Below, one piece after another: positions 818 through 43,625 of a DNA stretch of 46,727 nucleotides. Source of the DNA: a virus; the IMG/VR virus record IMGVR_UViG_3300036715_000202, positions 1 to 46,727 of that record; one strand, written 5' to 3'. Every line of letters starts with the position of its first letter. Within the stretch, counting starts at the first letter, position 1. The notes under the pieces are model-generated. The model did no database searches, was not told the origin of the DNA, and saw only the letters and a list, made by a program, of their open reading frames with translations. The position numbers and the translations under genes are program-made.

Positions 818-845
818 TTGACAATTCTGAATTCTCCTGTATAAT
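818..845 (+). promoter_or_regulatory. Perfect-consensus sigma-70 promoter (P1)
   Basis: The -35 hexamer TTGACA (818-823) and -10 hexamer TATAAT (840-845) both match the sigma-70 consensus exactly, with a 16-base spacer. It fires rightward into the amide-ligase block, whose first ATG is at 896. Just downstream lie two palindromes, ATCTAGAT (846-853) and CCCTACAGGG (859-868), placed where a repressor or roadblock protein could bind. The 840-869 stretch recurs, inverted, at 12614-12643. Confidence 0.88.
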
Positions 846-895: not shown

Positions 896-1732
896 ATGGA
901 TAAGCTGGACGTCATCAAGAGGGTTGCTCATTCATCTAACGCCCTCACCCCTGGGAGACCGTGTGTGTACGGTGGTTGGAGTAATGACGATATTCATGTC
1001 TTTGTCGACCTCAACCCCCCTTGCCATGCAAGCTTGGAACGTCAGGGGTCCAACCTGTACGACCACTACGTCACGTCGTATCACATGTGGCCTAATGCGA
1101 AGCTCGGTGTCGCCTACTTCAATTTCATGAAGTACCACCTGTACAAGGAGTGGAAAGAGTACATCCACCTCGAGTATTTCGACAAGCTGCCGTACATTCA
1201 CATCTCGGACTGCTCTAAGATTCCGGCCAACGTGTTCTACAACCTGTCGATCTGTTCGAGGGTGCCGGTGGAGTGGCGTAACGAGCTCAAGACGTGGTAC
1301 ATCCTCACGCTTGAGGGTGTCAATCCGGGTCTCGCGTACCTGATCGCCTTCTGTCCACTGGACCAGCAGCTTCTCGAGCCCGGTGGCAGGCGGCTTCTGC
1401 GTCTTCGAGACCCGAAGGGTCGGTTCACCGGTGAGGTGCGAGAAATCCTCGATCCGGTTGATCACCGTAACCGGCTCAACAAAATCTACCTCCTAGGACC
1501 ACCAAACTTCGCTGGTCATCGGTGCTTTGATCCGGGTCTCATCGTCAAGCGTATGATCGATGGGGCTCCCATTAGCAACCATAAGTCGTGGAAGGAAGAG
1601 GCCACCGCATGTCGTCCCACCAACAGAATCTGGGGCGAGTCACAAGACACCCGGCATTGGTCCGGTAAAACTATTCGTCAGCTCATTGACGAGTACACTC
1701 CCCAACCTGCAAACAAGGAAGCAGTAGCATGA
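896..1732 (+). CDS. Unknown protein, first gene of the amide-ligase block
   Basis: This 278-residue soluble protein is rich in aromatic residues and histidine and resembles no family I can name. The start at 896 lies about 44 bases after the predicted transcription start of P1. Its stop overlaps the ATG of the class I glutamine amidotransferase at 1729 (ATGA), so the two are translationally coupled. Position and coupling suggest it belongs to the same pathway, perhaps as a substrate-binding or recognition protein, but that is inference. An antisense frame within it is a shadow of codon bias. Confidence 0.82.
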   Translation: MDKLDVIKRVAHSSNALTPGRPCVYGGWSNDDIHVFVDLNPPCHASLERQGSNLYDHYVTSYHMWPNAKLGVAYFNFMKYHLYKEWKEYIHLEYFDKLPYIHISDCSKIPANVFYNLSICSRVPVEWRNELKTWYILTLEGVNPGLAYLIAFCPLDQQLLEPGGRRLLRLRDPKGRFTGEVREILDPVDHRNRLNKIYLLGPPNFAGHRCFDPGLIVKRMIDGAPISNHKSWKEEATACRPTNRIWGESQDTRHWSGKTIRQLIDEYTPQPANKEAVA

Positions 1733-2403
1733 AGTTCTATTCTATCGGTGACTTTGGAGGCTATGATAGCGTCCACAAGCTCTTCACGGATTCTTTCGGC
1801 TGGTCTTCCGTTATGAAGCCCGCTGACGCTGACGTGATCGTCTGGAACGGTGGCGCTGACATCGGTACGGAGATTTACGGCGAGAAGTCCGTCATGTGTG
1901 GTGTTCCCGAGCGCCAGTCCTACCGAGATCAGATGGAAATCGGTATGTTCGAGGACTTCAAGAACTCCGGCAAGCTGAAACTCGGCATCTGTCGTGGTGC
2001 TCAGCTCCTCAACTGTCTGAACGGCGGCAAGCTGTACCAGGATGTGAACAATCACACCAATTCTCACCTGATGCTTGACGTCAGGACTGGTGAAGAGATT
2101 CAGATCACCTCCACCCACCATCAGCAGATGCGGGCTGGCCAGGACGCCACCATCATCGGTATCGCCAACGACAGCACCCGGAAGACCTCTGAGGAGGGCA
2201 CCGTCACCCACGCTCAAGCCCCCTCCATAAAGGATGGCAAGGACCTTGAGATCGTGTGGTACCCCGACACGCAGACTCTCTGCATCCAGGGACACCCCGA
2301 GTACGTCCCCGGTTCACGGTTCGCTAAATACACCTTGGAGTTGATCACCAAGTTGTACACCCCAGTTGTGTCCTTTATTGGAGAACTCGAATGTGTGGAC
2401 TAG
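1729..2403 (+). CDS. Class I glutamine amidotransferase / gamma-glutamyl hydrolase-like (peptidase C26 type)
   Basis: The protein has 224 residues. The nucleophile elbow LGICRGAQLLN places the catalytic Cys at residue 88. QGHPEY supplies His189 and Glu191, completing the class I triad. The GG-x-L-x-QD pattern after the elbow resembles the PuuD/gamma-glutamyl-GABA hydrolase branch. Members of the fold hydrolyse glutamine to free ammonia or cleave gamma-glutamyl bonds. Here it could feed ammonia to, or deprotect products of, the ligases that follow. It overlaps the class II amidotransferase gene by 13 bases. The substrate is unknown. Confidence 0.88.
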   Translation: MKFYSIGDFGGYDSVHKLFTDSFGWSSVMKPADADVIVWNGGADIGTEIYGEKSVMCGVPERQSYRDQMEIGMFEDFKNSGKLKLGICRGAQLLNCLNGGKLYQDVNNHTNSHLMLDVRTGEEIQITSTHHQQMRAGQDATIIGIANDSTRKTSEEGTVTHAQAPSIKDGKDLEIVWYPDTQTLCIQGHPEYVPGSRFAKYTLELITKLYTPVVSFIGELECVD

Positions 2404-3512
2404 TCGGTGTTGCTGGGGCGATCGACCCCCAAGCCCGCAGTATCTTCAATGAGCTGTTGCTCGTTGGTGTTGTTCGCGGCCACCATTCCACTGGTGTTGC
2501 CGCTGTGGAGCGGGAGAATAACAGCGAGATTTCTCTCGCCAAGATGCCCGGCCCCAGCCAGATTCTGGTGTCTTCCGACCTCTACCAGAAAACGGTGAAC
2601 AGGGCGGCTCTGAAATGCCTCATCGGGCACAACCGATACGCCACCGTCGGTGACAAGACAGTCGAGAACGCTCACCCGTTTGCCTTCGAGAACCTCGTGG
2701 GTGCACACAACGGCACCATCGACCGCTGGGTCCTTAGCCGTTTCGATGGTACCTTCGGGACAGACTCCGAGACCCTGTACAACGCCATCCACAGTCTGGG
2801 TGTCAAGGTGGCAATCGGGAAGCTCAACGAGCAGTCTGCGTGGGCTCTGACGTGGTACGACAAGACTGACAATACGATCAACCTCTTACGTAACAGCAGG
2901 CGGCCTCTGACCTATTGCTACTCTGAAGACCGGCGTCAAATGTTCTGGGCTTCCGAACCCGCCATGCTTGAGTGGGTCATGCGTCGCAATGGGCTCAAGC
3001 CTGAGAAGGATTCGTTCTACGAGTGTGAGTCGAACATGCTCTACAAGTGGACACTCCCGGAGAAGGCCCTCGACAAGTTCGAAAAGCCTTTGTGCACTGA
3101 GGTCAAGCCCGCGCCTTTTTTGTACCAAGCGCCTCCGCGCGTAAAAGACTACGGCGGCTTGTGGGCAGATGTTGGCCCATGGGACGGGGTGGTGGGTGAC
3201 TACCGCAACCATCGATCCAACGTGACTTATCTCCCTAGCAATAAGCAGGCATACGTCCCCGACAAGAAAAGCAATCGGATTGACACGACCAAATTCCGTC
3301 CTCCATACAAGAACGGCAAGGGCGGGGTACTGACCAAGCCTCAGTTCATGGCTCTCACAAAGCACGGCTGTGCCTTTTGTGATGACAACAGCTCTACTTG
3401 GGGGGAGTTTATTCACATCCTCAAGGACGACTACGACGGGCGGCAGACTTACCTATGTGAGTCCTGCTATAACGACGACGACATCCATCAACTAATCGAG
3501 AACATCGCCTAA
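2391..3512 (+). CDS. Class II (Ntn-type) glutamine amidotransferase with a C-terminal zinc finger
   Basis: The 373-residue protein begins MCGLVGVAG, so removing Met would expose Cys2 as the Ntn-hydrolase nucleophile. RGHHSTG and the later HNRYAT and HNGTID segments follow the glutaminase domain of GlmS/PurF-type enzymes. The expected role is glutamine hydrolysis and ammonia delivery. No sugar-isomerase or phosphoribosyl domain follows. Instead the C-terminus carries CxxC pairs at 327/330 and 356/359, likely a zinc-binding module. A ligase partner must therefore use the ammonia. A phage carrying both class I and class II glutaminases side by side is notable. Confidence 0.9.
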   Translation: MCGLVGVAGAIDPQARSIFNELLLVGVVRGHHSTGVAAVERENNSEISLAKMPGPSQILVSSDLYQKTVNRAALKCLIGHNRYATVGDKTVENAHPFAFENLVGAHNGTIDRWVLSRFDGTFGTDSETLYNAIHSLGVKVAIGKLNEQSAWALTWYDKTDNTINLLRNSRRPLTYCYSEDRRQMFWASEPAMLEWVMRRNGLKPEKDSFYECESNMLYKWTLPEKALDKFEKPLCTEVKPAPFLYQAPPRVKDYGGLWADVGPWDGVVGDYRNHRSNVTYLPSNKQAYVPDKKSNRIDTTKFRPPYKNGKGGVLTKPQFMALTKHGCAFCDDNSSTWGEFIHILKDDYDGRQTYLCESCYNDDDIHQLIENIA

Positions 3513-3523
3513 GGAGCGAAAAC

Positions 3524-4336
3524 ATGCGTAAGATTCTTATAGGTGCAGACCCTGAGTTGTTTATGCGTAATCCCAACACTGGGTCTTTCGTGTCTGCTCA
3601 CGGTCTGGTCCCCGGCACCAAGTACGCCCCGCACAAGGTTCCATTCGGAGCCGTTCAGATCGACGGTACTGCTCTTGAGTTCAACATCGATCCTGCGTCA
3701 ACTGTTGATGAGTTTCTTCACAACATCCAGTCAGTGAAGCAAACTATCTCAGACTACGTACCCGGCTACAACGTGGTTGCGGAACCTGTCGCTCTGTACG
3801 AACAGGACTATTTTGACTGGGACGTCCCGGGCGAGGCCAAGGAGCTGGGTTGTGAACCCGACTTCAATGCATGGACCCTCGATAAGAACCCCCGACCAGA
3901 CCCCGGCAATCGTCCGTTCAGAACCGCTTCCGGACACATTCACATCGGCTGGACCAAGGACATGGACCCGTTCGACGACATGCACTTCCAGGAATGCGCG
4001 GCTGTTGCCCGACAGATGGACTACTATCTGGGTATCCACAGCCTGCGCTGGGACAAGGATGGCACTCGTCGCGAACTCTACGGCAAGGCTGGGGCGTTCC
4101 GTCCGAAGCCCTACGGCATGGAGTACCGAGTTCTCTCGAACCGCTGGCTGTCTAGCCCCACGCTGATCCGCTGGGTCTACAATCAGGCCATCAAGGGCAT
4201 GAACTCTCCCTCTGCGTACCAGCAGTACGGTGATATTGCCCAGAAGATCATCGACAACAATGAACTCGACTGGCAGTCCAAGCATCGGCTGGACATCGTG
4301 GTTGAAGAGCTGCCCAAGGAGGTGCTTGCAGCATGA
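3524..4336 (+). CDS. Glutamine-synthetase-fold amide ligase (COOH-NH2 ligase type 2, phiEco32-like)
   Basis: This 270-residue protein matches the family described in phage phiEco32. It has an N-terminal GADPELF (acidic metal-site residues Asp9 and Glu11) and QIDGTALEFNIDPA. SGHIHIGW supplies a paired-His motif and MEYRVLSNRWLSS the conserved Arg region. The family is predicted to join a carboxylate to an amine using ATP, as glutamine synthetase does. A ribosome site (AAGGAG, 3511-3516) precedes the ATG. It follows the class II glutaminase by 11 bases and overlaps the next gene by four, consistent with one pathway. Confidence 0.88.
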   Translation: MRKILIGADPELFMRNPNTGSFVSAHGLVPGTKYAPHKVPFGAVQIDGTALEFNIDPASTVDEFLHNIQSVKQTISDYVPGYNVVAEPVALYEQDYFDWDVPGEAKELGCEPDFNAWTLDKNPRPDPGNRPFRTASGHIHIGWTKDMDPFDDMHFQECAAVARQMDYYLGIHSLRWDKDGTRRELYGKAGAFRPKPYGMEYRVLSNRWLSSPTLIRWVYNQAIKGMNSPSAYQQYGDIAQKIIDNNELDWQSKHRLDIVVEELPKEVLAA

Positions 4337-4941
4337 AGATCATCTATGACAATCTGGAAGACTCACGCCAGAAACTGATCGGAACGTACTGTCTCTACGA
4401 CGGTAAAGCTGTCATGATCAAGAATGTTAATGATGATGACAATGCGGGTCCAGCGAAGTACAAGGTCTCGGCCAGTACAATCTTCAATGGGCGGATGGCC
4501 CACTTCGAGTTGGCCGACCCTAAGTTCAATTTCCAGAACTTGAATATCGGCTACGTCGCACGTGCGGATGGCTTCGCCGCTATCTGGTACTACCGAAAGC
4601 CTCTTCGACAGTATCGTCAAGGGCTTCGGTCTGACCAAGTTGGCATGAAGTTCAGCAGCCGTCGCTTTGCTGATGTTGGTTTCAACGACTACAAGAGCGT
4701 TGCGGCCATGCTGGAAAACAAGTACCCCAATTTCAAGGAGGTCAGCGACCGGCTTCGTGCTAATGAAATCATCATCGGTGCATTTCATAAAAACTTTGCC
4801 GCGTCATTCGATGACATCCACGAGGATGTGATCATTGAGTACAAGGGTGTTCGTGTCGGACATTCCACCCACCCTTCCAAGTTCCAACTTGTTCCGAACT
4901 ACGAGTTCTTGAAGGAACATCTGCAGGAGGCTATCGCATGA
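4333..4941 (+). CDS. Unknown protein inside the amide-ligase block
   Basis: The protein has 202 residues, is soluble and has no motif I recognise. Its ATG overlaps the stop of the type 2 ligase by four bases, and its own stop overlaps the start of the second ligase. It is therefore locked between two ligase genes and almost certainly co-translated with them. The N-terminal half looks beta-rich (for example YCLYDGKAVMIKNV). It might be an accessory or substrate protein for the ligases. That is inference from position only. Confidence 0.82.
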   Translation: MKIIYDNLEDSRQKLIGTYCLYDGKAVMIKNVNDDDNAGPAKYKVSASTIFNGRMAHFELADPKFNFQNLNIGYVARADGFAAIWYYRKPLRQYRQGLRSDQVGMKFSSRRFADVGFNDYKSVAAMLENKYPNFKEVSDRLRANEIIIGAFHKNFAASFDDIHEDVIIEYKGVRVGHSTHPSKFQLVPNYEFLKEHLQEAIA

Positions 4942-6071
4942 TCGTGATGAATTCGCGATTGGCAGACGTATTCCCCGGTATGTGGGCGGTTGACCCAGAC
5001 CCCAACTTGTTCGGGGTTGAGGTTGAGCTCGAAGGCAGGGAGATCATTGACCGGACTGGGGTGCTCGGTAAATACTGGTCGGCACATAATGATGGCAGTC
5101 TTCGACAGCTTCGCCCCGGTGATCAGGCCATCGAGTACGTCCTGAACAAGCCCACCAACTGGGAGAATACAAAGTTCGCTGTCAACTTGCTTTGTAAGTT
5201 CCTCACCTTGCCCGACAAGAAGGTGTATGACAGCTACCGGACTTCGATCCACGTGCATGTCAACTGCTTGCAGGAGACCATGGGCACCATCTACAACTAC
5301 ATCACCCTCGCCACGATCTTCGACGAGCTGCTGGTGAGCCAGAATGGTGAGCACCGTATCGGCAATAACTTCTGTCTCCGCATGAAGGACGCTGAAGGTG
5401 TTATCCACGATCTGATGGAGTCCATCGCCAACCACGGTAATGTCAACGGTATTCACCAGAACAACCGATACTCCTCGGTTAACATTGGCAGCCTACTCAA
5501 GTTCGGTACGATTGAGTTCCGGTCCCTTGAGTGCACGACTGACGCTAATCGTATCCTTCACTGGATTGAGACGTGTCAGGCGATGAAACAGGCTGCGCGT
5601 GAGTACGCAAACCCGCGGGAGATCATCACTCAGTTCAGTCAAGAGGGTCCAGCCCAGTTTCTGGTACACATTCTTGGCCCTCTAGCTGAGAAGTACACCA
5701 ATGTCCCTGATATGCAGCGGATGTTGTACACTGGGGCTCGCCTTGCTCAGGACTTGGCGTACTGCTCCGACTGGAAGGCCAATGCTGCGGCTAAGCCCCC
5801 GCCCAAGCCGCGGAAAAAGGTTGACCCTAATGCAGCCTTTCGCATCTTGGACATTGAACCGGTCAGACCGGACTGGCCACCGGGCAACCCTCCCGTACCG
5901 CAGGTTGTGGCACGGGCACTAGGGAATGGTGATGAATGGGATGTAGCTCCGCCGCCCCCGCAGAACATATGGGCTAACCCCCTTCTGGTACCTATCGTAG
6001 ACGATGACGAAGACTTCGTTGACCTTGCAGAGGATGAAGACGATGATGATGAAGAAGAAGAAGAATTTTAA
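4938..6071 (+). CDS. Amidoligase (PF12224-like) with a proline-rich linker and polyacidic C-terminal tail
   Basis: The 377-residue protein shows the amidoligase signature: FGVEVELEG (Glu28, Glu30, Glu32), HNDGSLR, SIHVHVN and GTIEFRSLE. These are the metal- and ATP-binding elements of a glutamine-synthetase-like fold that forms amide bonds. After about residue 285 the domain ends. A proline-rich linker (KPPPKPRKK, later PPPPQ) leads to a run of about twenty Asp/Glu residues ending in EEEEEF. The tail is encoded by GAT/GAA/GAG repeats that also encode the start of the ATP-grasp gene in another frame. The tail could dock partners or be a modification target. Confidence 0.87.
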   Translation: MIVMNSRLADVFPGMWAVDPDPNLFGVEVELEGREIIDRTGVLGKYWSAHNDGSLRQLRPGDQAIEYVLNKPTNWENTKFAVNLLCKFLTLPDKKVYDSYRTSIHVHVNCLQETMGTIYNYITLATIFDELLVSQNGEHRIGNNFCLRMKDAEGVIHDLMESIANHGNVNGIHQNNRYSSVNIGSLLKFGTIEFRSLECTTDANRILHWIETCQAMKQAAREYANPREIITQFSQEGPAQFLVHILGPLAEKYTNVPDMQRMLYTGARLAQDLAYCSDWKANAAAKPPPKPRKKVDPNAAFRILDIEPVRPDWPPGNPPVPQVVARALGNGDEWDVAPPPPQNIWANPLLVPIVDDDEDFVDLAEDEDDDDEEEEEF

Positions 6072-6816
6072 GCCCCGTGCCCCTCTCCTGTGGGTTGACA
6101 CGGGAGATCGCCCCTCTAACAGTGCAGCAGAGCTGTCCCGTCAAGAGGGTTTCCGACGTAATCGTACCTCGAAGTTCATCCGCGAGGCCGACACGATCAT
6201 TAACTGGGGTTCCACCGCTGAGGGTGACTACAAGAATGCTCATCGCGTTCTGAACAAGCCCGCAGCGGTGGCTGTTGCTGTCAACAAGCTCAGTGCCTTC
6301 AACGTCCTGAAGGCGGAGGGGTTGTCTATTCCTGCATTTACCACCTCTAAAGCTGAAGCTGTTGCTTGGAATCGTACATTCCTTGCACGAACTAAGTTGA
6401 CAGGGCACTCAGGAGAAGGTATTATAGTGGTTGATAAGGGGACACCGATTGCAGATGTCCCTGATGCTCCGCTGTATACTCTCTACATCTACAAGGTGCG
6501 AGAGTTCCGTAACCATGTGGTCAAATGCCAAGTGGTGGACTATCAGCAGAAAATTCGTGACCCTAATCGGGAGCCCAAGACGTGGAAAATTCGATCTCAT
6601 GAGAATGGTTTCATCTTTGTTCGTGAGGGCTTGGACAACGATCGTGCTCGTGACCGGCTTTGTGTGGAAGCCGTGTCTGCTTTGGGCCTGGATTTCGGGG
6701 CGGTGGACGTCATTGAAGATAATGAGGGGCACTACTATGTCTTGGAAATCAACACCGCCCCCGGACTTGAAGGACGCACAGTCACCTCTTACGCAAAGGC
6801 GTTCCATGACTATTAA
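6043..6816 (+). CDS. ATP-grasp ligase (RimK-like)
   Basis: This is an ATP-grasp enzyme of 257 residues. A Lys-containing NKLSAFNVLKAEGL segment and a GHSGEGI loop bind ATP, and YVLEINTAPGLEG holds the Mg-binding Glu and Asn. Such enzymes activate a carboxylate as acyl-phosphate and join it to an amine, often adding amino acids to peptides or cofactors. The frame stays open up to 6004, but I chose ATG 6043 because GAGG precedes it by nine bases. That gives a start MMMKKKKN overlapping the acidic tail of the previous gene by 29 bases. It is the third ligase of the block. Confidence 0.87.
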   Translation: MMMKKKKNFKPRAPLLWVDTGDRPSNSAAELSRQEGFRRNRTSKFIREADTIINWGSTAEGDYKNAHRVLNKPAAVAVAVNKLSAFNVLKAEGLSIPAFTTSKAEAVAWNRTFLARTKLTGHSGEGIIVVDKGTPIADVPDAPLYTLYIYKVREFRNHVVKCQVVDYQQKIRDPNREPKTWKIRSHENGFIFVREGLDNDRARDRLCVEAVSALGLDFGAVDVIEDNEGHYYVLEINTAPGLEGRTVTSYAKAFHDY

Positions 6817-7156
6817 GTGCAGGTACAAATTCACCCAGCACATCCCATTCCAGCTAGAGAGCCGACTGGTCTATCAATATGGCTTTAGGGTCATGAGTAG
6901 GAAGCAGGGTGAGTGGGTCATTCTTGAAAAAGAATTGCGTCTCACGAAGCCCAAGGACTTTGTAACTGAACTCAGTGATCACGACCAGATGCGTCTCATT
7001 AAGCGCTGCAATGCTGTGATGGATTACTACAACGACCCCGATGAATATGCTGATGATATTCGACGGAGGCTCCACAACATGGCTCAAGCCTCCCCAATGG
7101 TAGAAGGACTATTCATCCGCAATTGGGCGGAGAGAAACGTAGGGAAAGCATTTTAA
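6806..7156 (+). CDS. Unknown 116-residue protein after the ATP-grasp gene
   Basis: The open frame extends upstream to 6431, but that part lies inside the ATP-grasp gene in another frame. ATG 6806 gives a compact protein beginning MTIKCRYKFTQHIPFQ that overlaps the previous stop by 11 bases. The sequence is charged and mostly helical, without membrane segments or recognisable motifs. It is coupled on both sides, and its stop overlaps the next ATG at 7156. It probably belongs to the same pathway; no function is proposed. Confidence 0.75.
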   Translation: MTIKCRYKFTQHIPFQLESRLVYQYGFRVMSRKQGEWVILEKELRLTKPKDFVTELSDHDQMRLIKRCNAVMDYYNDPDEYADDIRRRLHNMAQASPMVEGLFIRNWAERNVGKAF

Positions 7157-7326
7157 TGCACTGCCCGATTTGTGATAAAGACTCTGACAGCGTGACATTG
7201 GTCAAGCCGTGTTCCGAATGTCAAGAAGCAATCCAAGAATGCTTGGACGGATATCCCCGAGATGATACGGAAGACAATGATGATGAAAGCGAGGTACTAG
7301 ATGAGTCATGGGACAACTTCAATTGA
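7156..7326 (+). CDS. Small zinc-ribbon protein with acidic tail
   Basis: This 56-residue protein has two CxxC pairs, CPIC near the start and CSEC about 18 residues later, forming a probable zinc knuckle. A strongly acidic tail follows. Its ATG shares a base with the previous stop (TAATG), and its 3' end overlaps the start of thyX by 26 bases. Small zinc-ribbon proteins often bind nucleic acid or act as adaptors. The role here is not known. Confidence 0.72.
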   Translation: MHCPICDKDSDSVTLVKPCSECQEAIQECLDGYPRDDTEDNDDESEVLDESWDNFN

Positions 7327-7960
7327 GTGGGCGACCCCAGACATCGACGAACGGATTGCTTACATGGCTCGGGTGTCTAATCCAGATGCTAAGCCCGATG
7401 ATCCGTATGAGAGGCTGATCAAATATCTGATCGACCACAAGCACTGGTCTCCGTTCGAGATGGCTTCGATCTGTGTCAAAATTACCACAACTCGTGACAT
7501 TGCTCGCCAGTTGCTGCGACATCGGTCGTTCCACTTCCAAGAGTTCAGTCAGCGGTACGCCGCAGTGGATCAAGAGAAGCCAGTTCTGTCTCAAGCCCGT
7601 CTGCAAGACACCAAGAACCGCCAGAACTCGATTGCAACTGATGACCCAGACCTGCAAAAGTGGTGGACCAATGCTCAGAACTTCACTTGGTCTGATGCTC
7701 AGACTCGGTATCAGCAAGCTCTGAACTACGGTGTGGCCAAGGAGGTGGCTCGCAAGCTGCTCCCCGAGGGTCTTACTACCACTCATCTGTTCATGTGTGG
7801 AACAGTCCGTGACTGGTACCACTACCTCAACGTCCGTACTGGACCTGAGACCCAGCTCGAACACCGGGAACTGGCCGAGCAAATCCTCGCTCAAGTCGGT
7901 GAGATTGCTCCATCCACGTTCGACACTCTCCTCGCTCCCGCCCTTCCGTATGGTGCATAA
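7301..7960 (+). CDS. thyX: Flavin-dependent thymidylate synthase
   Basis: The 219-residue protein carries the ThyX signature RHRSFHFQEFSQRY (RHR-x7-S form). It also has the N-terminal ARVSNP and HWSPFE elements that contact FAD and dUMP. It converts dUMP to dTMP with methylene-tetrahydrofolate and reduced flavin, raising the thymidine supply for phage DNA. GAGG seven bases upstream supports ATG 7301. It follows the amide-ligase block without a gap, and its stop overlaps the HAD gene start (TAATG). It fits with the nrdAB and dNTP diphosphohydrolase genes downstream. Confidence 0.95.
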   Translation: MSHGTTSIEWATPDIDERIAYMARVSNPDAKPDDPYERLIKYLIDHKHWSPFEMASICVKITTTRDIARQLLRHRSFHFQEFSQRYAAVDQEKPVLSQARLQDTKNRQNSIATDDPDLQKWWTNAQNFTWSDAQTRYQQALNYGVAKEVARKLLPEGLTTTHLFMCGTVRDWYHYLNVRTGPETQLEHRELAEQILAQVGEIAPSTFDTLLAPALPYGA

Positions 7961-8451
7961 TGAGTAAGATTATCTTTATCGACATCGACGGACCACTGAT
8001 CCCGGGGCGTGCGTACATGCTGCCCCGGAGCTACTTGCCCCTCCCGTTTGTCATGGATTTCGACCCAGTTGCGGTGAGTCTGCTCAATGATCTCGCTGCA
8101 ACTCGTGGATGGCAATTCGTTATCCACAGTTCATGGCTTCAGGTCTATGGCCCTGAGAAAACCCTTGAGCACTGCATCAAGGAAGGCCTGAAGGCGGAAT
8201 ACTTTGCGGAAGCTTCGTTGTGCGATGAGACTTTGTCTTGGCGCTACGACAGGGTGAGCAAGTATCTGGTGGACCACCCCGAGGTTACGGACTACGTTAT
8301 CATCGATGACGAACCGTACTCGGCAAGCGACAAGTACGAACACGTCAAGGACGTGAAGCAACACCTGCTACTCATCGACTTTGATGAGGGTTTTCTGTTG
8401 CGTAACTATCGACAGATCAAGGATGGAAAATGGAACAGAATGATCAACTAA
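7960..8451 (+). CDS. HAD-family phosphatase (HAD_SAK-like)
   Basis: The 163-residue protein opens with IIFIDIDGPL, the DxDG nucleophile motif of HAD hydrolases. HSSWLQ (motif II, Ser) and YVIIDDEP (motif IV, paired acids) follow. The overall pattern resembles the HAD domain found with RNA-repair proteins, which is common alone in phages. It probably removes a phosphate from a nucleotide or nucleic-acid end. It is coupled to thyX by a one-base overlap and overlaps the next small gene by 22 bases. Confidence 0.85.
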   Translation: MSKIIFIDIDGPLIPGRAYMLPRSYLPLPFVMDFDPVAVSLLNDLAATRGWQFVIHSSWLQVYGPEKTLEHCIKEGLKAEYFAEASLCDETLSWRYDRVSKYLVDHPEVTDYVIIDDEPYSASDKYEHVKDVKQHLLLIDFDEGFLLRNYRQIKDGKWNRMIN

Positions 8452-8642
8452 CGATTCATGACTACACCTTCCTGAAAGGTGATCCGGTTTACTGGCCACA
8501 CTGGGGGGCCAGCTATAGTTATGTCTCTACTTGGGTCCACAACAAAGGCTATGGGGGATTTGGCGACCCCACTGCCGCGGGCCTGATCGCCATGGACGAT
8601 TACGAGTTTCGAAACAGGGAGGAGGACCAAAGTGAGTGGTAG
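8430..8642 (+). CDS. Unknown 70-residue protein
   Basis: This small soluble protein is rich in Trp, Tyr and Gly (for example KGDPVYWPHWGASYSYVS). It overlaps the HAD gene by 22 bases and the phosphoesterase gene by 11. The start context GGATGGAAAATGG supplies a plausible ribosome site. No motif is recognised. The tight overlaps on both sides are the main evidence that it is expressed. Confidence 0.65.
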   Translation: MEQNDQLTIHDYTFLKGDPVYWPHWGASYSYVSTWVHNKGYGGFGDPTAAGLIAMDDYEFRNREEDQSEW

Positions 8643-9150
8643 GACTTGGGTCTGTGCCGACCACCACTTCGGGCACGCAAATATCCTGAACTTTGAAGAC
8701 GCTCAGGGTAACAAACTGCGTGGTTCTCGATTCAAGTCTGTCGAAGAACACGATGAACATCTCATAAAGGTCCACAATGAACTCGTCAGCCCACTCGATC
8801 GCGTTTACCTTCTGGGCGATGTCTGTATTAGTCGCCGGAGTATTCATACCCTGGGTCGATTGGCAGGTAGACTTGTCTTGGTTCGTGGTAACCACGACAT
8901 CTTTAAGCTCGAGGACTACATCCCTTACGTAGACGACGTGAGGGCGTATGTGGTTCAGAAAGACAAGGACGGGAACAAGGTTATCCTGTCTCACATCCCC
9001 ATCCATCCCGATTGTTTGGGTCGGTTTGGTACGAATATTCATGGGCATCTACACCAAAACAAACTGGATGATACTCGTTACAAGTGTGTAAGCTTGGAGC
9101 ATACAGATTACAAACCCATCCAGATTTTTGAAGCACTTAAGCTGCGCTGA
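8632..9150 (+). CDS. Calcineurin-like metallophosphoesterase
   Basis: The 172-residue protein shows all metal-site motifs of the family in order: DHHFGH, GDVCIS, RGNHD, SHIPIHP and GHLH. These bind two metals and hydrolyse phosphoesters; phage members act on nucleotides or nucleic-acid ends. The start is GTG at 8632, preceded by a strong GGGAGGAGG ribosome site. The gene overlaps the primase-helicase start by 23 bases. Its substrate cannot be read from the sequence. Confidence 0.9.
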   Translation: MSGRTWVCADHHFGHANILNFEDAQGNKLRGSRFKSVEEHDEHLIKVHNELVSPLDRVYLLGDVCISRRSIHTLGRLAGRLVLVRGNHDIFKLEDYIPYVDDVRAYVVQKDKDGNKVILSHIPIHPDCLGRFGTNIHGHLHQNKLDDTRYKCVSLEHTDYKPIQIFEALKLR

Positions 9151-10744
9151 GTGCGGAAGTAAAGACGCCAATAGTCTCTACGATGATGGCCACACTCATT
9201 GTTTTAGCTGTGGAAAAACGACGTTCCCTAATGATAAGGAGGTGGAGGGCCGTAAGATAGCTACTGACATCACACAAATCCGTAAGGATTACAAAGACTT
9301 GACTGACCGCCGAATCAGTCGTGCTTCTGCAGAGAAGTATCAAATTTGGAGAAACGAGGAGAATGGCCAAACATATTTTCCGTACTACCACGGGGACGGC
9401 AGGACGCACCTTTCTAATAAGGTCCGATACCCGGACAAAGAATTTTCTGTCGAGGGTGATCTTAAGCATAGCGGACTCTTTGGACAACAACTCTTTCCAG
9501 CAGGTAGCGCCAAGTTTGTCACCCTTGTCGAGGGAGAATACGATGCGCCTGCTGCGTTCGAGCTCATGGGATCAAGGTGGCCTGTCGTCTCTGTCCGTAA
9601 CGGAGCTGATGGCGCTACTCGTGATGTTGCGGACAATTTCGAGTACCTCAACTCTTTCGCAAACATCGTAATCTGCTTCGATAAAGATGATGCAAAAATC
9701 AACCCTAAGACAGGCGAGATACGATATCCCGGACAGGAAGCTGCTACTGCCGTGGCTGGCATGTTCCCCATCGGGAAGGTCAAAATTCTTACTCTTGCAG
9801 AAGGCAAGGACCCGAACGACTATCTTAGGGCTGGTCTTCGTGAAGCGTTCAACCGCGAATGGTGGGCGGCACCGGGATTTACTCCTAGCGGTCTTAAGCT
9901 GGGCCGTGAGATGTGGGATGAAATCTCGGAACCCAAGAATTATGAGACAGTTCCCTACCCTTGGAAAGGACTTAACGATCAGACGTATGGTGTCCGATTG
10001 TCAGAACTCGTCGTCGTCACAGCAGAAACGGGTGTGGGGAAGACGTCTGTACTCAAAGAGATTGAACACTTTGTCCTCAAAAATGTACCCAAACATGGTA
10101 TTGGACTCCTTCATCTCGAAGAACCGAACGCGGACACTGCTCTGGGATTGATGAGTATCGAAGCTAACCGCCCACTACACCTACCCGACGTGCGGGAGAT
10201 GACGCCCAAGGAGGAACTCCGTGGATACTTTGATGCTGTTATCAATACTGATCGGATCGTTATTTGGGATCACTTTGGTTCGAACAGTATCCAAGAGGTC
10301 CTCAATAAAGTACGGCACATGCATAATCTTGGGTGCAAGTACATCATTCTTGATCACCTTTCTATTGTCGTTTCTGATCAAAATGGTGATGAACGAAAGC
10401 AGCTAGACGAGATCAGCACCAAGCTGAAGACACTATGTATGGAGCTTAACATCTCCGTCATCTGTGTTATCCACCAGAACCGTCAGGGCCAGATTCGCGG
10501 CACTGCTGGGGTGGAACAGCTTGCTAACATCGTACTGAAGCTCAATCGTGAGCGGATGTCTGAAGACCCGTGGAGACGCAACGTCACCAAGATCATCGTG
10601 GAAAAGAATCGTTTCTGCGGTCGTACCGGTCCCGGTTGTTATCTTCACTACAACGAGCACACTGGCCGTCTCAACGAGCTCAATGAAGAGCAGATCAAGG
10701 CGTACAATGCTGGTGGCACAGCCGACATTGAGGTGTGGGCGTGA
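9128..10744 (+). CDS. T7 gp4-like DNA primase-helicase
   Basis: The 538-residue protein has an N-terminal zinc knuckle (CAEC then CFSC), followed by TOPRIM elements LVEGEYDA and CFDKDD. The RecA-type helicase follows, with Walker A ETGVGKTS, Walker B YIILDHLS, and motif IHQNRQG. Order and length match T7 gp4, so it should prime and unwind DNA at the fork beside the polymerase encoded next. TTG at 9128 is the best start because the zinc knuckle begins six residues later and no ATG lies upstream of it. There is no clear ribosome site, so translation may depend on coupling. Confidence 0.93.
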   Translation: MKHLSCAECGSKDANSLYDDGHTHCFSCGKTTFPNDKEVEGRKIATDITQIRKDYKDLTDRRISRASAEKYQIWRNEENGQTYFPYYHGDGRTHLSNKVRYPDKEFSVEGDLKHSGLFGQQLFPAGSAKFVTLVEGEYDAPAAFELMGSRWPVVSVRNGADGATRDVADNFEYLNSFANIVICFDKDDAKINPKTGEIRYPGQEAATAVAGMFPIGKVKILTLAEGKDPNDYLRAGLREAFNREWWAAPGFTPSGLKLGREMWDEISEPKNYETVPYPWKGLNDQTYGVRLSELVVVTAETGVGKTSVLKEIEHFVLKNVPKHGIGLLHLEEPNADTALGLMSIEANRPLHLPDVREMTPKEELRGYFDAVINTDRIVIWDHFGSNSIQEVLNKVRHMHNLGCKYIILDHLSIVVSDQNGDERKQLDEISTKLKTLCMELNISVICVIHQNRQGQIRGTAGVEQLANIVLKLNRERMSEDPWRRNVTKIIVEKNRFCGRTGPGCYLHYNEHTGRLNELNEEQIKAYNAGGTADIEVWA

Positions 10745-12570
10745 TGTTAAAGTATTTACCCACACCAAATGAGTACCATAAGTATTGGTACATCGATATC
10801 GAAGCGGACAGCCTCACGCCCACTCGGGTTTGGGTCCTGTGCGCTTCGCGGATGGACAGAGATGAGGTCCTGTCTTTCGTAGGACACGAAGAGATCAGGA
10901 GATTCTTCAATGAAAGTGACAAAGACTCAGTGTTCGTCGGGCACAACATACTCAGTTATGATGGACCCAACATCAAACGGCTGGTCGGACCTGAAGTCTC
11001 AAGCTCAAATTCTGTGGACACTCTTGTTCTATCTTATCTTTACAACCCTGCTCTTCCTGGCGGGCACTCTCTGGGTGCTTGGGGTGATCGTTTTAACTAC
11101 CCTAAAGGCAACTTCGCAGAGTTTGATCGGTACAGTCCAGAGATGGATAAGTATTGTCAGCAAGACGTACGGCTCGGTAAGAGAGTCTTCAAAGGTCTAG
11201 TTCAACGTATGTTGCGTATGGGCTTCAGTGAACTCTCGTGCAAGATTGAACACGAGATTAGAGAGGTAATTGATGAACAACAATCTAATGGATGGTACTT
11301 CGATATCGCCGGAGCACAAGCTCTTGTTGGACGACTGCGTGGCGAACAGAGCGATCTCGAGCGCCCTATTCGAGAACTATTTCCTCCACGTCTTTCCGAA
11401 GTTGGCACTTACCGGAGGCGCCAAAAAGCGGATGGAGGAGAGTTTGCAAGTTATCTCCGACATCTTGCGCAATTCCCCGACGTACGAGATAATGGGGATG
11501 GTACATACAGTACGTTTGACTGGGAAGAATTCAACATCGGAAGCCCTAAGCAGCGGGTCGAGCGACTCCTAGGGATCGGCTGGGAGCCCTCTGACTTCAC
11601 CGAGAAGGGTTTCCCCAAGGTGGATGAAGAAAGCCTCCTAGCGTTCGCTGAGAGCTCTGGAAGACCCGAAGCGCAGGCGATTGCAGAGTGGCTCGTACTA
11701 CAGGGTCGTGCCAGTATGATTGACGGTTGGCTAAATAACGTCAACTACGACGACCATTGTATGCACGGGCGGGTAATGACTTGTGCTGCCACTACACGGC
11801 GCATGATTCACAACTCCCCCAACACTGCAAACATCCCTAAGGCAAAAAAGAAAGTCAAGTATGGCATCGAATGCAGACGACTTTGGAGAGCAAGACCCGG
11901 TAGAAAAGAGGTTGGCTACGATGCCAGTGGTCTTGAGATGCGCATGTTTGCTGAATATCTTGCAAATGACGAGGCAACTCTCCTATTTACCACCGGAGAC
12001 CCCCATCTTCTCAACACTCGCAATCTCGGGCTTGCGGATGAGATGCGCGATCTTACCGTCAAGAATGGTTTTTATGCGTATCTCTATGGAGCAGGGGACC
12101 CTAAACTCGGACGCACCCTTAAACCTGAGCTTCAAGGGGGTGAAGCTGGACGATATGGGAAGGAAGCTCGTGCTATCCTTGAAACAGGCACACCCGGACT
12201 GGCAAAGCTGGTGGCCGAAATACAAGATGAGTTCCGCGCAAATGGAGGGGTGCTTAAGACGATCGATGGAGGGTTCGTACGATGTGGATCGACTTCTGCA
12301 GCACTCAACTATAAACTTCAGTCTGCCGGAGCTATCGTGATGAAGCAAGCTGCCATTCATGCACGAGATGAAATCAGAAAGCGTGGACTGGATAGCTTGC
12401 TTGTTGGTACAATTCATGATGAAGGACAACATGATGCCAAGACAGAAGACGCCGACGAAGTCGGACGAGTGTGTGTGCAAGCCATCCGGGACGCTGGGGA
12501 AACGCTTGGATTCAGAGTTCCGCTCGATGGTGAATACAAAGTCGGGGACAGCTGGGCGGAGTGTCACTAA
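10744..12570 (+). CDS. DNA polymerase I-type (family A, T7 gp5-like)
   Basis: The protein has 608 residues from ATG 10744, which shares a base with the preceding stop. The 3'-5' exonuclease has Asp18/Glu20 in YIDIEAD, GHNILSYDGPN and YCQQDV. The polymerase has motif A YDASGLEMR (Asp393), motif B YAYLYGAGDPKLG and motif C IHDEGQ (Asp559). The YLYGAGD segment is characteristic of T7-type enzymes. It replicates the genome with the primase-helicase. GTG codons at 10735 and 10741 are alternative starts. A consensus promoter on the opposite strand (12638-12665) points into its 3' end. Confidence 0.96.
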   Translation: MLKYLPTPNEYHKYWYIDIEADSLTPTRVWVLCASRMDRDEVLSFVGHEEIRRFFNESDKDSVFVGHNILSYDGPNIKRLVGPEVSSSNSVDTLVLSYLYNPALPGGHSLGAWGDRFNYPKGNFAEFDRYSPEMDKYCQQDVRLGKRVFKGLVQRMLRMGFSELSCKIEHEIREVIDEQQSNGWYFDIAGAQALVGRLRGEQSDLERPIRELFPPRLSEVGTYRRRQKADGGEFASYLRHLAQFPDVRDNGDGTYSTFDWEEFNIGSPKQRVERLLGIGWEPSDFTEKGFPKVDEESLLAFAESSGRPEAQAIAEWLVLQGRASMIDGWLNNVNYDDHCMHGRVMTCAATTRRMIHNSPNTANIPKAKKKVKYGIECRRLWRARPGRKEVGYDASGLEMRMFAEYLANDEATLLFTTGDPHLLNTRNLGLADEMRDLTVKNGFYAYLYGAGDPKLGRTLKPELQGGEAGRYGKEARAILETGTPGLAKLVAEIQDEFRANGGVLKTIDGGFVRCGSTSAALNYKLQSAGAIVMKQAAIHARDEIRKRGLDSLLVGTIHDEGQHDAKTEDADEVGRVCVQAIRDAGETLGFRVPLDGEYKVGDSWAECH

Positions 12571-12613: not shown

Positions 12614-12643
12614 CCCCTCTAGGGCACTGATCTAGATATTATA
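12614..12643 (-). repeat. Inverted copy of the P1 promoter-proximal element
   Basis: Read on the minus strand, this 30-base stretch matches 840-869 at 28 of 30 positions. It begins with TATAATATCTAGATC and ends with CCCTAGAGGGG. Both copies keep the palindromes ATCTAGAT and CCCTANAGGG just after the -10 hexamer. Such conservation outside coding sequence suggests a shared operator or RNA leader. Confidence 0.88.
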
Positions 12644-12665
12644 TCATAGATTTCAGTTCTGTCAA
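12638..12665 (-). promoter_or_regulatory. Perfect-consensus sigma-70 promoter facing leftward (P2)
   Basis: On the minus strand, TTGACA (12665-12660) and TATAAT (12643-12638) are separated by 16 bases, as in P1. A transcript would start near 12631 and run antisense into the DNA polymerase gene. No minus-strand gene lies downstream nearby, so it may make a regulatory RNA or a replication primer. Confidence 0.82.
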
Positions 12666-16408: not shown

Positions 16409-17372
16409 ACCTTTTAGGTACCCATTTGCATACAAGCACTGGAAGCAACAGCAACGAGTGCACTGGCTACCTGAAGAGGTGCCACTAGCGGAAGACGTGA
16501 AAGACTGGGCCACCAAGCTCTCTGCAGCAGAACGGTCCTTACTCACTCACATCTTCCGCTTTTTTACTCAGTCCGACATTGAAGTACAAGACAACTACAT
16601 GACTCGGCTAGGAGCCCTTGAATGGCCAACGGAAGTGAAGATGATGCTGGCGAGTTTCGCAAACATGGAGACAATTCATATCGATGCGTACAGCCTGCTG
16701 ATCGAAACTATCGGGATGCCAGAGACGACGTACAGCCAGTTCATGGAGTACGACGCTCTCAAGGACAAGCACGAGACGTACAAGTCTTTCAATACTTCTA
16801 CTGCCGAGGATGTGGCCAAGACACTAGCGATGTTTGGCGGGTTCGCCGAGGGAGTACAACTGTTTGCTTCCTTTGCGGTACTGATGAACTTTCCCCGCTT
16901 CAATAAGATGAAGGGGATGGGACAGATAGTTAGCTGGTCTGTCCGGGACGAGAGCCTTCACTGCGAGGGTATCACAGATTTGTTTCGTACGTACACCCAA
17001 GAGACTGGTGTCTTAACCCGCGGGCTCAAGCGGGAAATCTATGATATCGCTGAGCTTGTAGTGCAGCAAGAGGACAAGTTTGTTGAACTGATGTTTGAAG
17101 CTGGGCCTGTTGAGGGCATCACAGTTGACGACATGAAGAGCTACATTCGGTACATGTGTGACTTCCGTCTCCGTGGTCTCGGGCTCAAGCCGATCTTCAA
17201 GACTGGCCGAAAGCATCCGCTACCTTGGCTGACGCCTTTGCTGTCTGGACCCGAGCACGCGAACTTCTTCGAGACTCGATCAACAGAATACAGTAAGGCT
17301 GCCACACGAGGCGACTGGTCACAAGTATGGGACGATATGGCATTGCGGGGATATGAGTTTAATGCTGACTGA
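16365..17372 (+). CDS. nrdB: Ribonucleotide reductase small subunit (class I); start codon uncertain
   Basis: The protein supplies the radical for deoxyribonucleotide synthesis. The ETIHIDAYSLL segment holds a Glu-x-x-His iron site and the radical Tyr. A second Glu-x-x-His is in WSVRDESLHCEG. FTQSDIEVQDNY and a clear family N-terminus, KPFRYPFAYKHWKQQQ then HWLPEEVP, are present. That N-terminus begins at 16407, upstream of the first GTG (16458), and no ATG, GTG or TTG lies before it in frame. I give ATT 16365, which has GAGG nine bases upstream, as a provisional start. CTG 16386 or a shift from the 16226-16408 frame are alternatives. Confidence 0.87.
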   Translation: MTQTPQILTPSLGYKPFRYPFAYKHWKQQQRVHWLPEEVPLAEDVKDWATKLSAAERSLLTHIFRFFTQSDIEVQDNYMTRLGALEWPTEVKMMLASFANMETIHIDAYSLLIETIGMPETTYSQFMEYDALKDKHETYKSFNTSTAEDVAKTLAMFGGFAEGVQLFASFAVLMNFPRFNKMKGMGQIVSWSVRDESLHCEGITDLFRTYTQETGVLTRGLKREIYDIAELVVQQEDKFVELMFEAGPVEGITVDDMKSYIRYMCDFRLRGLGLKPIFKTGRKHPLPWLTPLLSGPEHANFFETRSTEYSKAATRGDWSQVWDDMALRGYEFNAD

Positions 17373-43596: not shown

Positions 43597-43625
43597 ATTA
43601 TACTACTTTCCCCCGCCAATGTCAA
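43597..43625 (-). promoter_or_regulatory. Perfect-consensus leftward sigma-70 promoter (P4)
   Basis: On the minus strand TTGACA (43625-43620) and TATAAT (43602-43597) are separated by 17 bases. The transcript begins within the inverted-repeat arm at 43584-43595. It lies upstream of P5, so the late arm has two tandem promoters. Confidence 0.87.

What the first reader, a model, noticed from the sequence alone, without database searches (positions are those of the whole stretch)
896..7326. Compact phage pathway for amide or peptide bond formation on an unknown substrate
Seen: nine coupled genes under one consensus promoter, including a class I glutaminase, a class II glutaminase with zinc finger, two glutamine-synthetase-fold ligases of different families, an ATP-grasp ligase and four unknown proteins. 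Known: these ligase families are predicted to join carboxylates to amines, and relatives occur in phages such as phiEco32. Inference: five catalytic genes in a 46.6-kb genome imply a valuable product, such as a modified nucleotide, a peptide tag on host or virion proteins, or a small molecule. ThyX follows without a gap, which keeps a DNA-modification role possible.
Basis: partly seen in the sequence, partly recalled or inferred. Interest (0 to 1): 0.82.

Follow-up and report, generated by a model that had tools for sequence, protein, structure and literature searches.

The report
Phage glutamyl-amide ligase gene module
This virus carries a fixed set of seven early genes that probably build and then trim unusual glutamate-linked bonds on an unknown target; the gene set is already known from hundreds of phages and its function has apparently never been tested, but comparing relatives shows that a glutamyl-removing enzyme is always present and that one unnamed protein keeps a single cysteine and a single arginine.

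Summary
Behind a perfect sigma-70 promoter (818-845) lie overlapping genes for an unknown protein (g1), a class-I fold amidase, a class-II glutamine amidotransferase, two GS-fold ligases, an unknown protein (g5) and a RimK-like ATP-grasp ligase, all enzymes with conserved catalytic residues. The module is not new: it was published as a putative phage "peptidoglycan modification" module, and one ligase alone has relatives in 317 phage records.

New here, from 111 non-redundant relatives: (1) the class-II amidotransferase, both ligases and the ATP-grasp occur together in 111/111; g5 in 104. (2) The "class I glutaminase" is nearest to gamma-glutamyl-GABA hydrolases, so it probably removes gamma-glutamyl groups; relatives without it carry an unrelated gamma-glutamyl cyclotransferase, so 111/111 have one or both. 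(3) g1 belongs to a module-restricted family with an invariant Cys and Arg (152/152) despite 9% identity and no PDB fold match. (4) ThyX (12/111) and the last two small genes are lineage extras; no DNA-hypermodification gene was found.

Best reading: an early, host-directed pathway that makes and trims glutamyl amide/isopeptide bonds. The target (envelope precursor, protein or metabolite) is open.

The parts
818..845 (+). sigma-70 consensus promoter TTGACA-N16-TATAAT, about 50 nt upstream of g1
   Evidence: 12/12 match; one of three exact sites in the window, 0 expected in shuffles
896..1732 (+). g1: unknown 278-aa protein, founder here of a module-restricted family with invariant C43 and R122
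   Evidence: 152/152 C and R with about 9% median identity; AF2 pLDDT 82; no PDB fold match; viral fold matches that carry names lie in module-carrying phages; no Pfam/PHROG hit for the window copy
1729..2403 (+). g2: class-I GATase-fold Peptidase_C26, probable gamma-glutamyl-amide hydrolase (PuuD-like), triad C88/H189/E191
   Evidence: PF07722 2.5e-13; triad 83/83; nearest solved structures Lin1909, probable glutamine amidotransferase 7d4r, PuuD 6vtv, ahead of CPSase/GMPS
2391..3512 (+). g3: class-II (Ntn) glutamine amidotransferase, Cys2, with C-terminal four-Cys zinc-knuckle-like site
   Evidence: GATase_6 9.9e-16, phrog_4736 2.8e-65; N107/G108/D125 conserved, C327/C330/C356/C359 in 99-100 of 102; nearest solved PurF/GlmS
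3524..4336 (+). g4: GS-fold COOH-NH2 ligase type 2 (PF14395)
   Evidence: phrog_3815 6.6e-81; E11, E52, H138, H140, R182, E200, R202 conserved in 103-104 of 104
4333..4941 (+). g5: conserved 202-aa protein, usually between the two ligases; predicted SH3-like/beta-barrel protein, weak EF-P/eIF5A-like fold match
   Evidence: phrog_11055 3.9e-25; present in 104/111; AF2 pLDDT 92.7; best PDB hits EF-P/eIF5A/HEX-1, E about 1e-3, TM 0.2-0.3
4938..6071 (+). g6: GS-fold Amidoligase_2 (PF12224) with an acidic C-terminal tail
   Evidence: 8.4e-12, phrog_7469 4.8e-61; E28, E30, E66, H105, H107, E193 in 100/100, E32 in 99/100
6043..6816 (+). g7: RimK-like ATP-grasp ligase (start 6043, 6046 or 6049)
   Evidence: phrog_2599 1.3e-69; nearest solved alpha-L-glutamate ligase/RimK; K95, E167, R169, K183, D235, E248, N250 in 104/104 (numbering of ORF 6004)
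6806..7156 (+). g8: small lineage-specific protein, not a core module gene
   Evidence: relatives in 15 of 263 loci, all close relatives of the window
7156..7326 (+). g9: 56-aa CxxC..CxxC zinc-ribbon-like protein, accessory
   Evidence: relatives in 40 of 263 loci, 23 of 111

Best explanation
The locus is a complete copy of a widespread phage amidoligase module, probably expressed early from a host-type promoter, that forms and then trims glutamate-based amide or isopeptide bonds. Proposed steps: g3 hydrolyses glutamine and supplies ammonia (and glutamate). The GS-fold ligases g4 and g6 activate a carboxylate as acyl phosphate, most likely the gamma-carboxyl of glutamate as PuuA, GS and GCS do, and join it to an amine or ammonia. 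The RimK-like ATP-grasp g7 adds an amino acid, probably glutamate, by an alpha-amide. g2 then hydrolyses a gamma-glutamyl amide; in relatives without g2 a gamma-glutamyl cyclotransferase does this. A gamma-glutamyl group is therefore put on and later taken off, as in PuuA/PuuD putrescine use. g1, with its invariant Cys and Arg, is either an unrecognised enzyme of the pathway or its carrier or acceptor; g5 is an accessory or scaffold. The target is most likely host-side, with an envelope precursor the leading but unproven candidate. Shown: gene content, linkage, conserved active sites, the constant presence of a gamma-glutamyl-cleaving family, the g1 family. Inferred: every reaction, the timing and the target.
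For: Class-II amidotransferase, amidoligase and ATP-grasp are present in 111/111 non-redundant ligase loci and g5 in 104/111, usually in the same order ahead of the primase/helicase. Catalytic residues are conserved. g2 is nearest to gamma-glutamyl-GABA hydrolases. C26 or GGCT is present in 108/111 loci; the three exceptions encode GGCT elsewhere in the genome and no C26. Ten of ten C26-type genomes lack GGCT and ten of ten GGCT-type genomes lack C26. Simulated independent evolution on the ligase tree gives no 'neither' genome with probability about 0.01. Location next to replication genes with an exact host-type promoter. The Puu precedent is described in PMC9397018. The ligase is nearly virus-only: of 84,980 species genomes, 11 hits, all in MAG contigs.
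Against: No reaction or product has been demonstrated for any module member in the papers held here. The sign test on independent pairs is underpowered (5 pairs, p 0.25). Only the 'neither' cases were rescued by a whole-genome search, which favours the pattern; without that it is 28 of 31. C26-fold proteins also include amidotransferases and other hydrolases, so gamma-glutamyl specificity rests on nearest-relative evidence. Neither GS-fold ligase has a solved relative detectable by sequence.
Confidence: 0.58

Rival explanations
1. Published reading: the enzymes build unusual peptide linkages into peptidoglycan stem peptides or precursors, altering the wall to exclude superinfecting phages or to prepare lysis.
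For: This is the interpretation of Iyer 2009 and Hardies 2013 as reported in PMC11945000, PMC5498523 and PMC10580990. Glutamine amidotransferases with ligases do amidate stem peptides in Gram-positives (general knowledge: MurT/GatD, AsnB/LtsA). A gamma-linked D-Glu exists in stem peptides.
Against: No gene of the module is specific to muropeptides: no Mur ligase was recognised among the core families. g2 is PuuD-like, not GatD-like. The papers held cite the prediction, not a test.
Confidence: 0.35
2. Peptide or amino-acid tag on a host or phage protein; g1 (invariant Cys) or g5 (EF-P-like barrel) would be the substrate or adaptor and the RimK-like ligase the tagging enzyme.
For: The nearest solved relatives of g7 are RimK protein-glutamate ligases. 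g1 diverges far faster than the catalysts (9% against 46% median identity for g4) yet keeps one Cys and one Arg in all 152 members. The g5 fold search is dominated by EF-P/eIF5A, proteins modified on one side chain.
Against: The g5 resemblance is weak (TM 0.2-0.3, no sequence support). No conserved acceptor Lys in g5. Fast divergence is common among early phage proteins and was not compared with a background set.
Confidence: 0.25
3. Nitrogen or amino-acid economy: a gamma-glutamyl cycle or polyamine route that reshapes glutamate/glutathione/polyamine pools during infection.
For: The same gene set (GATase, amidoligase, 'glutathione synthase', GGCT) in Phage-ZRK32 was read as nitrogen-metabolism genes (PMC10945688). 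GS-fold ligase plus C26 hydrolase is the PuuA/PuuD pair (PMC9397018).
Against: The oxidase, dehydrogenase and transporter of the Puu route were not found in the module. Three ATP-consuming ligases plus a glutaminase spend rather than save glutamate. The ligases are nearly absent from cellular genomes, unlike typical auxiliary metabolic genes.
Confidence: 0.2
4. DNA hypermodification, suggested by the adjacent thyX.
For: ThyX starts inside the last small gene (-26 nt).
Against: ThyX is present in only 12/111 relatives, carries the ordinary RHRX7S motif and accompanies NrdA/NrdB, which fits dNTP supply. No dUMP/dCMP hydroxymethylase, base kinase or deazaguanine gene appeared in the PHROG scans, though not every small ORF was scanned.
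Confidence: 0.04

Closest known systems
Phage 'putative peptidoglycan modification module' (phiRIO-1, LUZ24/PaP3-like, PA11, phiEco32, Salmonella phage 7-11)
   Same: Same two GS-fold ligases, ATP-grasp and class-II amidotransferase, with g5, next to replication genes
   Different: The window has the PuuD-like C26 instead of GGCT and one g1 copy; phiEco32, LUZ24-like and 7-11 phages have GGCT and two unknown proteins in the g1 position. PA11 and other Zobellviridae-like phages share the C26 arrangement
PuuA/PuuD gamma-glutamyl-putrescine pathway (E. coli; Spu/Pau in Pseudomonas)
   Same: GS-fold gamma-glutamyl ligase paired with a C26 gamma-glutamyl-amide hydrolase; g2 is nearest to this hydrolase group
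   Different: No oxidase or dehydrogenase; a second GS-fold ligase, an ATP-grasp and an Ntn amidotransferase are added; the phage ligases are not PuuA orthologues
RimK / MptN ATP-grasp alpha-glutamate ligases
   Same: Closest profile and solved-structure relatives of g7, with conserved ATP-grasp residues
   Different: Bit scores far below the curated cut-offs for RimK or MptN; acceptor unknown
Butirosin-type gamma-glutamyl protection (ATP-grasp ligase plus GGCT-type remover BtrG; own knowledge)
   Same: Logic of adding and later removing a gamma-glutamyl cap with an unrelated remover
   Different: No carrier-protein thioester machinery recognised; no aminoglycoside genes

Membership tests
Phage amidoligase ('peptidoglycan modification') module | PF14395 COOH-NH2 ligase and PF12224 amidoligase together | tested here: met
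   both together in 111/111 relatives
Phage amidoligase ('peptidoglycan modification') module | ATP-grasp ligase and class-II glutamine amidotransferase in the same cluster | tested here: met
Phage amidoligase ('peptidoglycan modification') module | GGCT (listed component, not universal: PMC5498523 counts PA11 in the module, and L090, taken as PA11 from its 49,639-bp length, has C26 and no GGCT) | tested here: not met
   no PF06094 match in the window genome; L090 gene list. Not treated as defining, because published members lack it
Phage amidoligase ('peptidoglycan modification') module | Actual modification of peptidoglycan | not testable with these tools
   needs muropeptide analysis; no test found in the papers held
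Peptidase C26 / gamma-glutamyl hydrolase (PuuD-like) | Cys-His-Glu triad with ICRGxQ, HHQ and QxHPE motifs | tested here: met
   C88, H130/H131/Q132, H189, E191 in 83/83
Peptidase C26 / gamma-glutamyl hydrolase (PuuD-like) | Hydrolysis of gamma-glutamyl amides | not testable with these tools
   only nearest-structure evidence
Class-II (Ntn) glutamine amidotransferase | N-terminal Cys after Met, conserved Asn-Gly and Asp | tested here: met
   MCGLVG; N107, G108, D125 conserved
Phage DNA hypermodification system | Base-precursor hydroxymethylase, base kinase or deazaguanine genes, linked across relatives | tested here: not met
   none in PHROG scans of about 30 ORFs; ThyX linked in only 12/111
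EF-P/eIF5A (for g5) | Full-length fold match or sequence-profile match | tested here: not met
   TM 0.2-0.3; no profile match to PDB chains or Pfam

The most novel reading that the evidence does not exclude
g1 is the founding member of a new protein family whose invariant cysteine is catalytic or is itself the acceptor or carrier of the glutamyl chain, so that the module is a phage-specific tagging or carrier-bound peptide system, with C26 or GGCT as the releasing step, rather than a wall-modifying pathway.
Probability: 0.15. Interest if true: 0.82.

Novelty: new member of a known kind. Interest (0 to 1): 0.5.

Why it matters
The module has been reported since 2009-2013 with a cell-wall function repeated in annotations but, in the papers held, never tested. 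The constant presence of a gamma-glutamyl-cleaving enzyme with two unrelated solutions predicts the chemistry (a gamma-glutamyl linkage that is made and removed) and gives concrete assays. The unrecognised g1 family adds a core component that earlier annotations leave as hypothetical. If the product were identified, it would explain a gene set carried by hundreds of phages, including phages of Pseudomonas aeruginosa and Escherichia coli, and would name a host process that phages repeatedly alter early in infection.

Tried and rejected
DNA similarity search with the whole region found no named phage. Clean mutual exclusion of C26 and GGCT was my first idea; it failed, because 21 of 80 C26 loci also have GGCT in the wide sample, so the claim was reduced to 'at least one is always present'. 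The independent-pairs sign test had too few pairs. Solved-structure searches with g1, g5, g4 and g6 profiles gave nothing usable (the PPR hits for g1 are short matches of about 17 residues). PADLOC found no defence-system match. Linking the LUZ24-type unknowns (phiIBB-PAA2 orf18/19) to g1 by profile comparison failed; they share only a short Cys-Phe-Gly motif. My first search with g8 and g9 used the wrong frame and wrongly gave no relatives; corrected. A test of whether an exact promoter precedes the module in relatives was negative (5 of 108, 2.8 expected), so the promoter is not a conserved feature of the module. ThyX and DNA modification were considered and rejected.
Full report
WHAT IS THERE. 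The window is a 46,727-bp virus record. On the + strand, after an exact sigma-70 consensus promoter at 818-845, nine ORFs overlap or nearly touch: g1 896-1732 (unknown), g2 1729-2403 (class-I GATase fold, Peptidase_C26), g3 2391-3512 (class-II glutamine amidotransferase with four conserved Cys near the C-terminus), g4 3524-4336 (COOH-NH2 ligase PF14395), g5 4333-4941 (phrog_11055, unknown), g6 4938-6071 (Amidoligase_2 PF12224), g7 about 6043-6816 (ATP-grasp), g8 6806-7156 and g9 7156-7326 (small), then ThyX 7301-7960. Replication genes follow, and ribonucleotide reductase lies at 16458-19050. The late genes run on the other strand with a P22-like portal.

ALREADY KNOWN. The g4 family alone has 317 records among named phages and more than 470 matching stretches in one IMG/VR scan. 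The literature names the set in LUZ24-like phages, PA11, phiEco32, 7-11, RIO-1 and others and calls it a putative peptidoglycan modification module that may prevent superinfection (PMC11945000, PMC5498523, PMC10580990), resting on predictions by Iyer 2009 and Hardies 2013, neither of which is held here. One paper reads the same genes in a Planctomycetes phage as nitrogen-metabolism genes (PMC10945688). I found no biochemical or genetic test in the papers held.

LINKAGE. I collected 263 loci, the window included, by ligase scans of viral and genome contigs and from annotated phage records. After removing ligases at or above 90% identity and requiring 5.5 kb on both sides, 111 remained. The class-II amidotransferase, amidoligase and ATP-grasp are in 111/111, g5 in 104, C26 in 80, GGCT in 49, a g1-family protein detectable in 86, ThyX in 12. 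Gene order is largely conserved ahead of the primase/helicase. g8 is in 15 and g9 in 40 of the 263 loci, so they are lineage extras. The selection is by the ligase, so these counts describe ligase-carrying loci, not each gene's distribution elsewhere.

ACTIVE SITES. Columns conserved across 83 to 104 sequences include the C26 triad C88/H189/E191, class-II amidotransferase N107/G108/D125 (Cys2 nearly invariant), GS-fold acidic and His residues in both ligases, and the ATP-grasp K, D, E and N residues. Nothing suggests decay.

THE CLASS-I ENZYME IS PROBABLY NOT A GLUTAMINASE. Its profile hits Lin1909, the C26 proteins 7d4r/7d53/7d50 (deposited as probable glutamine amidotransferase; from memory P. 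aeruginosa SpuA) and E. coli PuuD well ahead of carbamoyl-phosphate or GMP synthase subunits, and its best partial NCBIfam match is a gamma-glutamyl-CDP-amidate hydrolase. PuuD hydrolyses gamma-glutamyl-GABA in the pathway that begins with PuuA (PMC9397018; that PuuA is GS-fold is general knowledge).

A GAMMA-GLUTAMYL REMOVER IS ALWAYS PRESENT. Of 111 loci, 59 have only C26, 28 only GGCT, 21 both, 3 neither. The three, and Proteus phage 3H10_20, encode GGCT elsewhere in the genome and no C26. Ten C26-type genomes, including the window, have no GGCT anywhere; ten GGCT-type genomes have no C26. Uncorrected association p = 7e-10. Allowing for descent, simulated independent evolution of GGCT on the ligase tree leaves no genome with neither in about 1% of runs, while the paired sign test is underpowered. 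C26 and GGCT are different folds with different reactions (release of Glu versus 5-oxoproline; established knowledge); what they share is cutting a gamma-glutamyl bond. I infer that such a bond is formed and must be removed.

THE g1 FAMILY. g1 had no family assignment. Iterated profiles link it to the proteins upstream of the ligases in CVT22, RIO-1, 172P1, 7-11, phiEco32 (phi32_87 clearly, phi32_88 weakly) and LAh_6. Across 152 members, C43 and R122 never change, while median pairwise identity is 9%, against 22-46% for the other module proteins in the same genomes. A model of fair quality (pLDDT 82, weak at 158-204) has no PDB match, but a blind search of viral models returned, among its best named hits, proteins of CVT22, CW02, 3H10_20, GAP52, LAh_8, LAh_6 and 4_4572. 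All but 4_4572 either gave ligase hits here or are listed in the literature as module carriers, and GAP52 and LAh_8 each return two. LUZ24-type, crAss-type and Rhizobium-phage unknowns in the same position share only a Cys-[Phe/Tyr]-Gly-like motif and are not shown to be homologous.

g5. Usually adjacent to the ligases, predicted with confidence (pLDDT 92.7), mostly beta. The best PDB hits are almost all EF-P/eIF5A/HEX-1, but at E about 1e-3 and TM 0.2-0.3 and without sequence support. I take this as an SH3-like barrel and a lead only.

MECHANISM. The common denominator is glutamate chemistry: a glutamine hydrolase, two GS-fold acyl-phosphate ligases, a RimK-like ligase and a gamma-glutamyl remover. 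The best-supported account is an add-then-trim pathway that yields an amidated or isopeptide-linked product. The position before the replication genes and the host-type promoter point to host takeover rather than virion assembly. What is modified is not determined. Envelope precursors (published), proteins and small molecules all remain open; DNA is unlikely, because ThyX is neither linked nor unusual and no base-modifying gene was found in the ORFs scanned.

SCORE. The module is a new member of a known kind. The two comparative results make an old open question testable, hence interest 0.5.

Noticed in passing
window 39305-41542 and 896-12570: The portal is P22-like (best named relatives about 35% identical, e.g. 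Vibrio phage VvAW1) while the ligase's closest named relatives are mostly Zobellviridae, suggesting a mosaic podovirus with no close named relative.
   Followed up: partly
window 12638-12665 (-) and 43597-43625 (-): Two further exact TTGACA-N16/17-TATAAT sites, both on the minus strand; the second lies just upstream of the small terminase gene.
   Followed up: no
window 7960-8451 and 8632-9150: A small protein of phrog_1818 (unknown; starts like a HAD phosphatase) and a calcineurin-like phosphoesterase sit between ThyX and the primase/helicase; the phosphoesterase recurs in up to 38 loci and phrog_1818 in 12.
   Followed up: partly
window 5960-6068: The amidoligase ends in a low-complexity acidic tail (AEDEDDDDEEEEEF) whose DNA also encodes the start of the ATP-grasp gene in another frame.
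   Followed up: no
L021 (MT135025.1, Vibrio phage V07): A 349-kb record classed as Straboviridae carries a module with the same gene lengths and order as podovirus IME234; possibly a mis-assembly or chimera.
   Followed up: no
L103-L113: In 84,980 bacterial and archaeal species genomes the g4-type ligase was found only in 11 contigs, all from metagenome-assembled genomes and several of phage length, including Patescibacteria, Dojkabacteria and Parcubacteria bins.
   Followed up: no
L034, L036, L039, L069, L072, L086 and others: A subgroup of relatives carries both C26 and GGCT, with GGCT upstream of g1; the two cleavage enzymes may act on different steps or products.
   Followed up: partly
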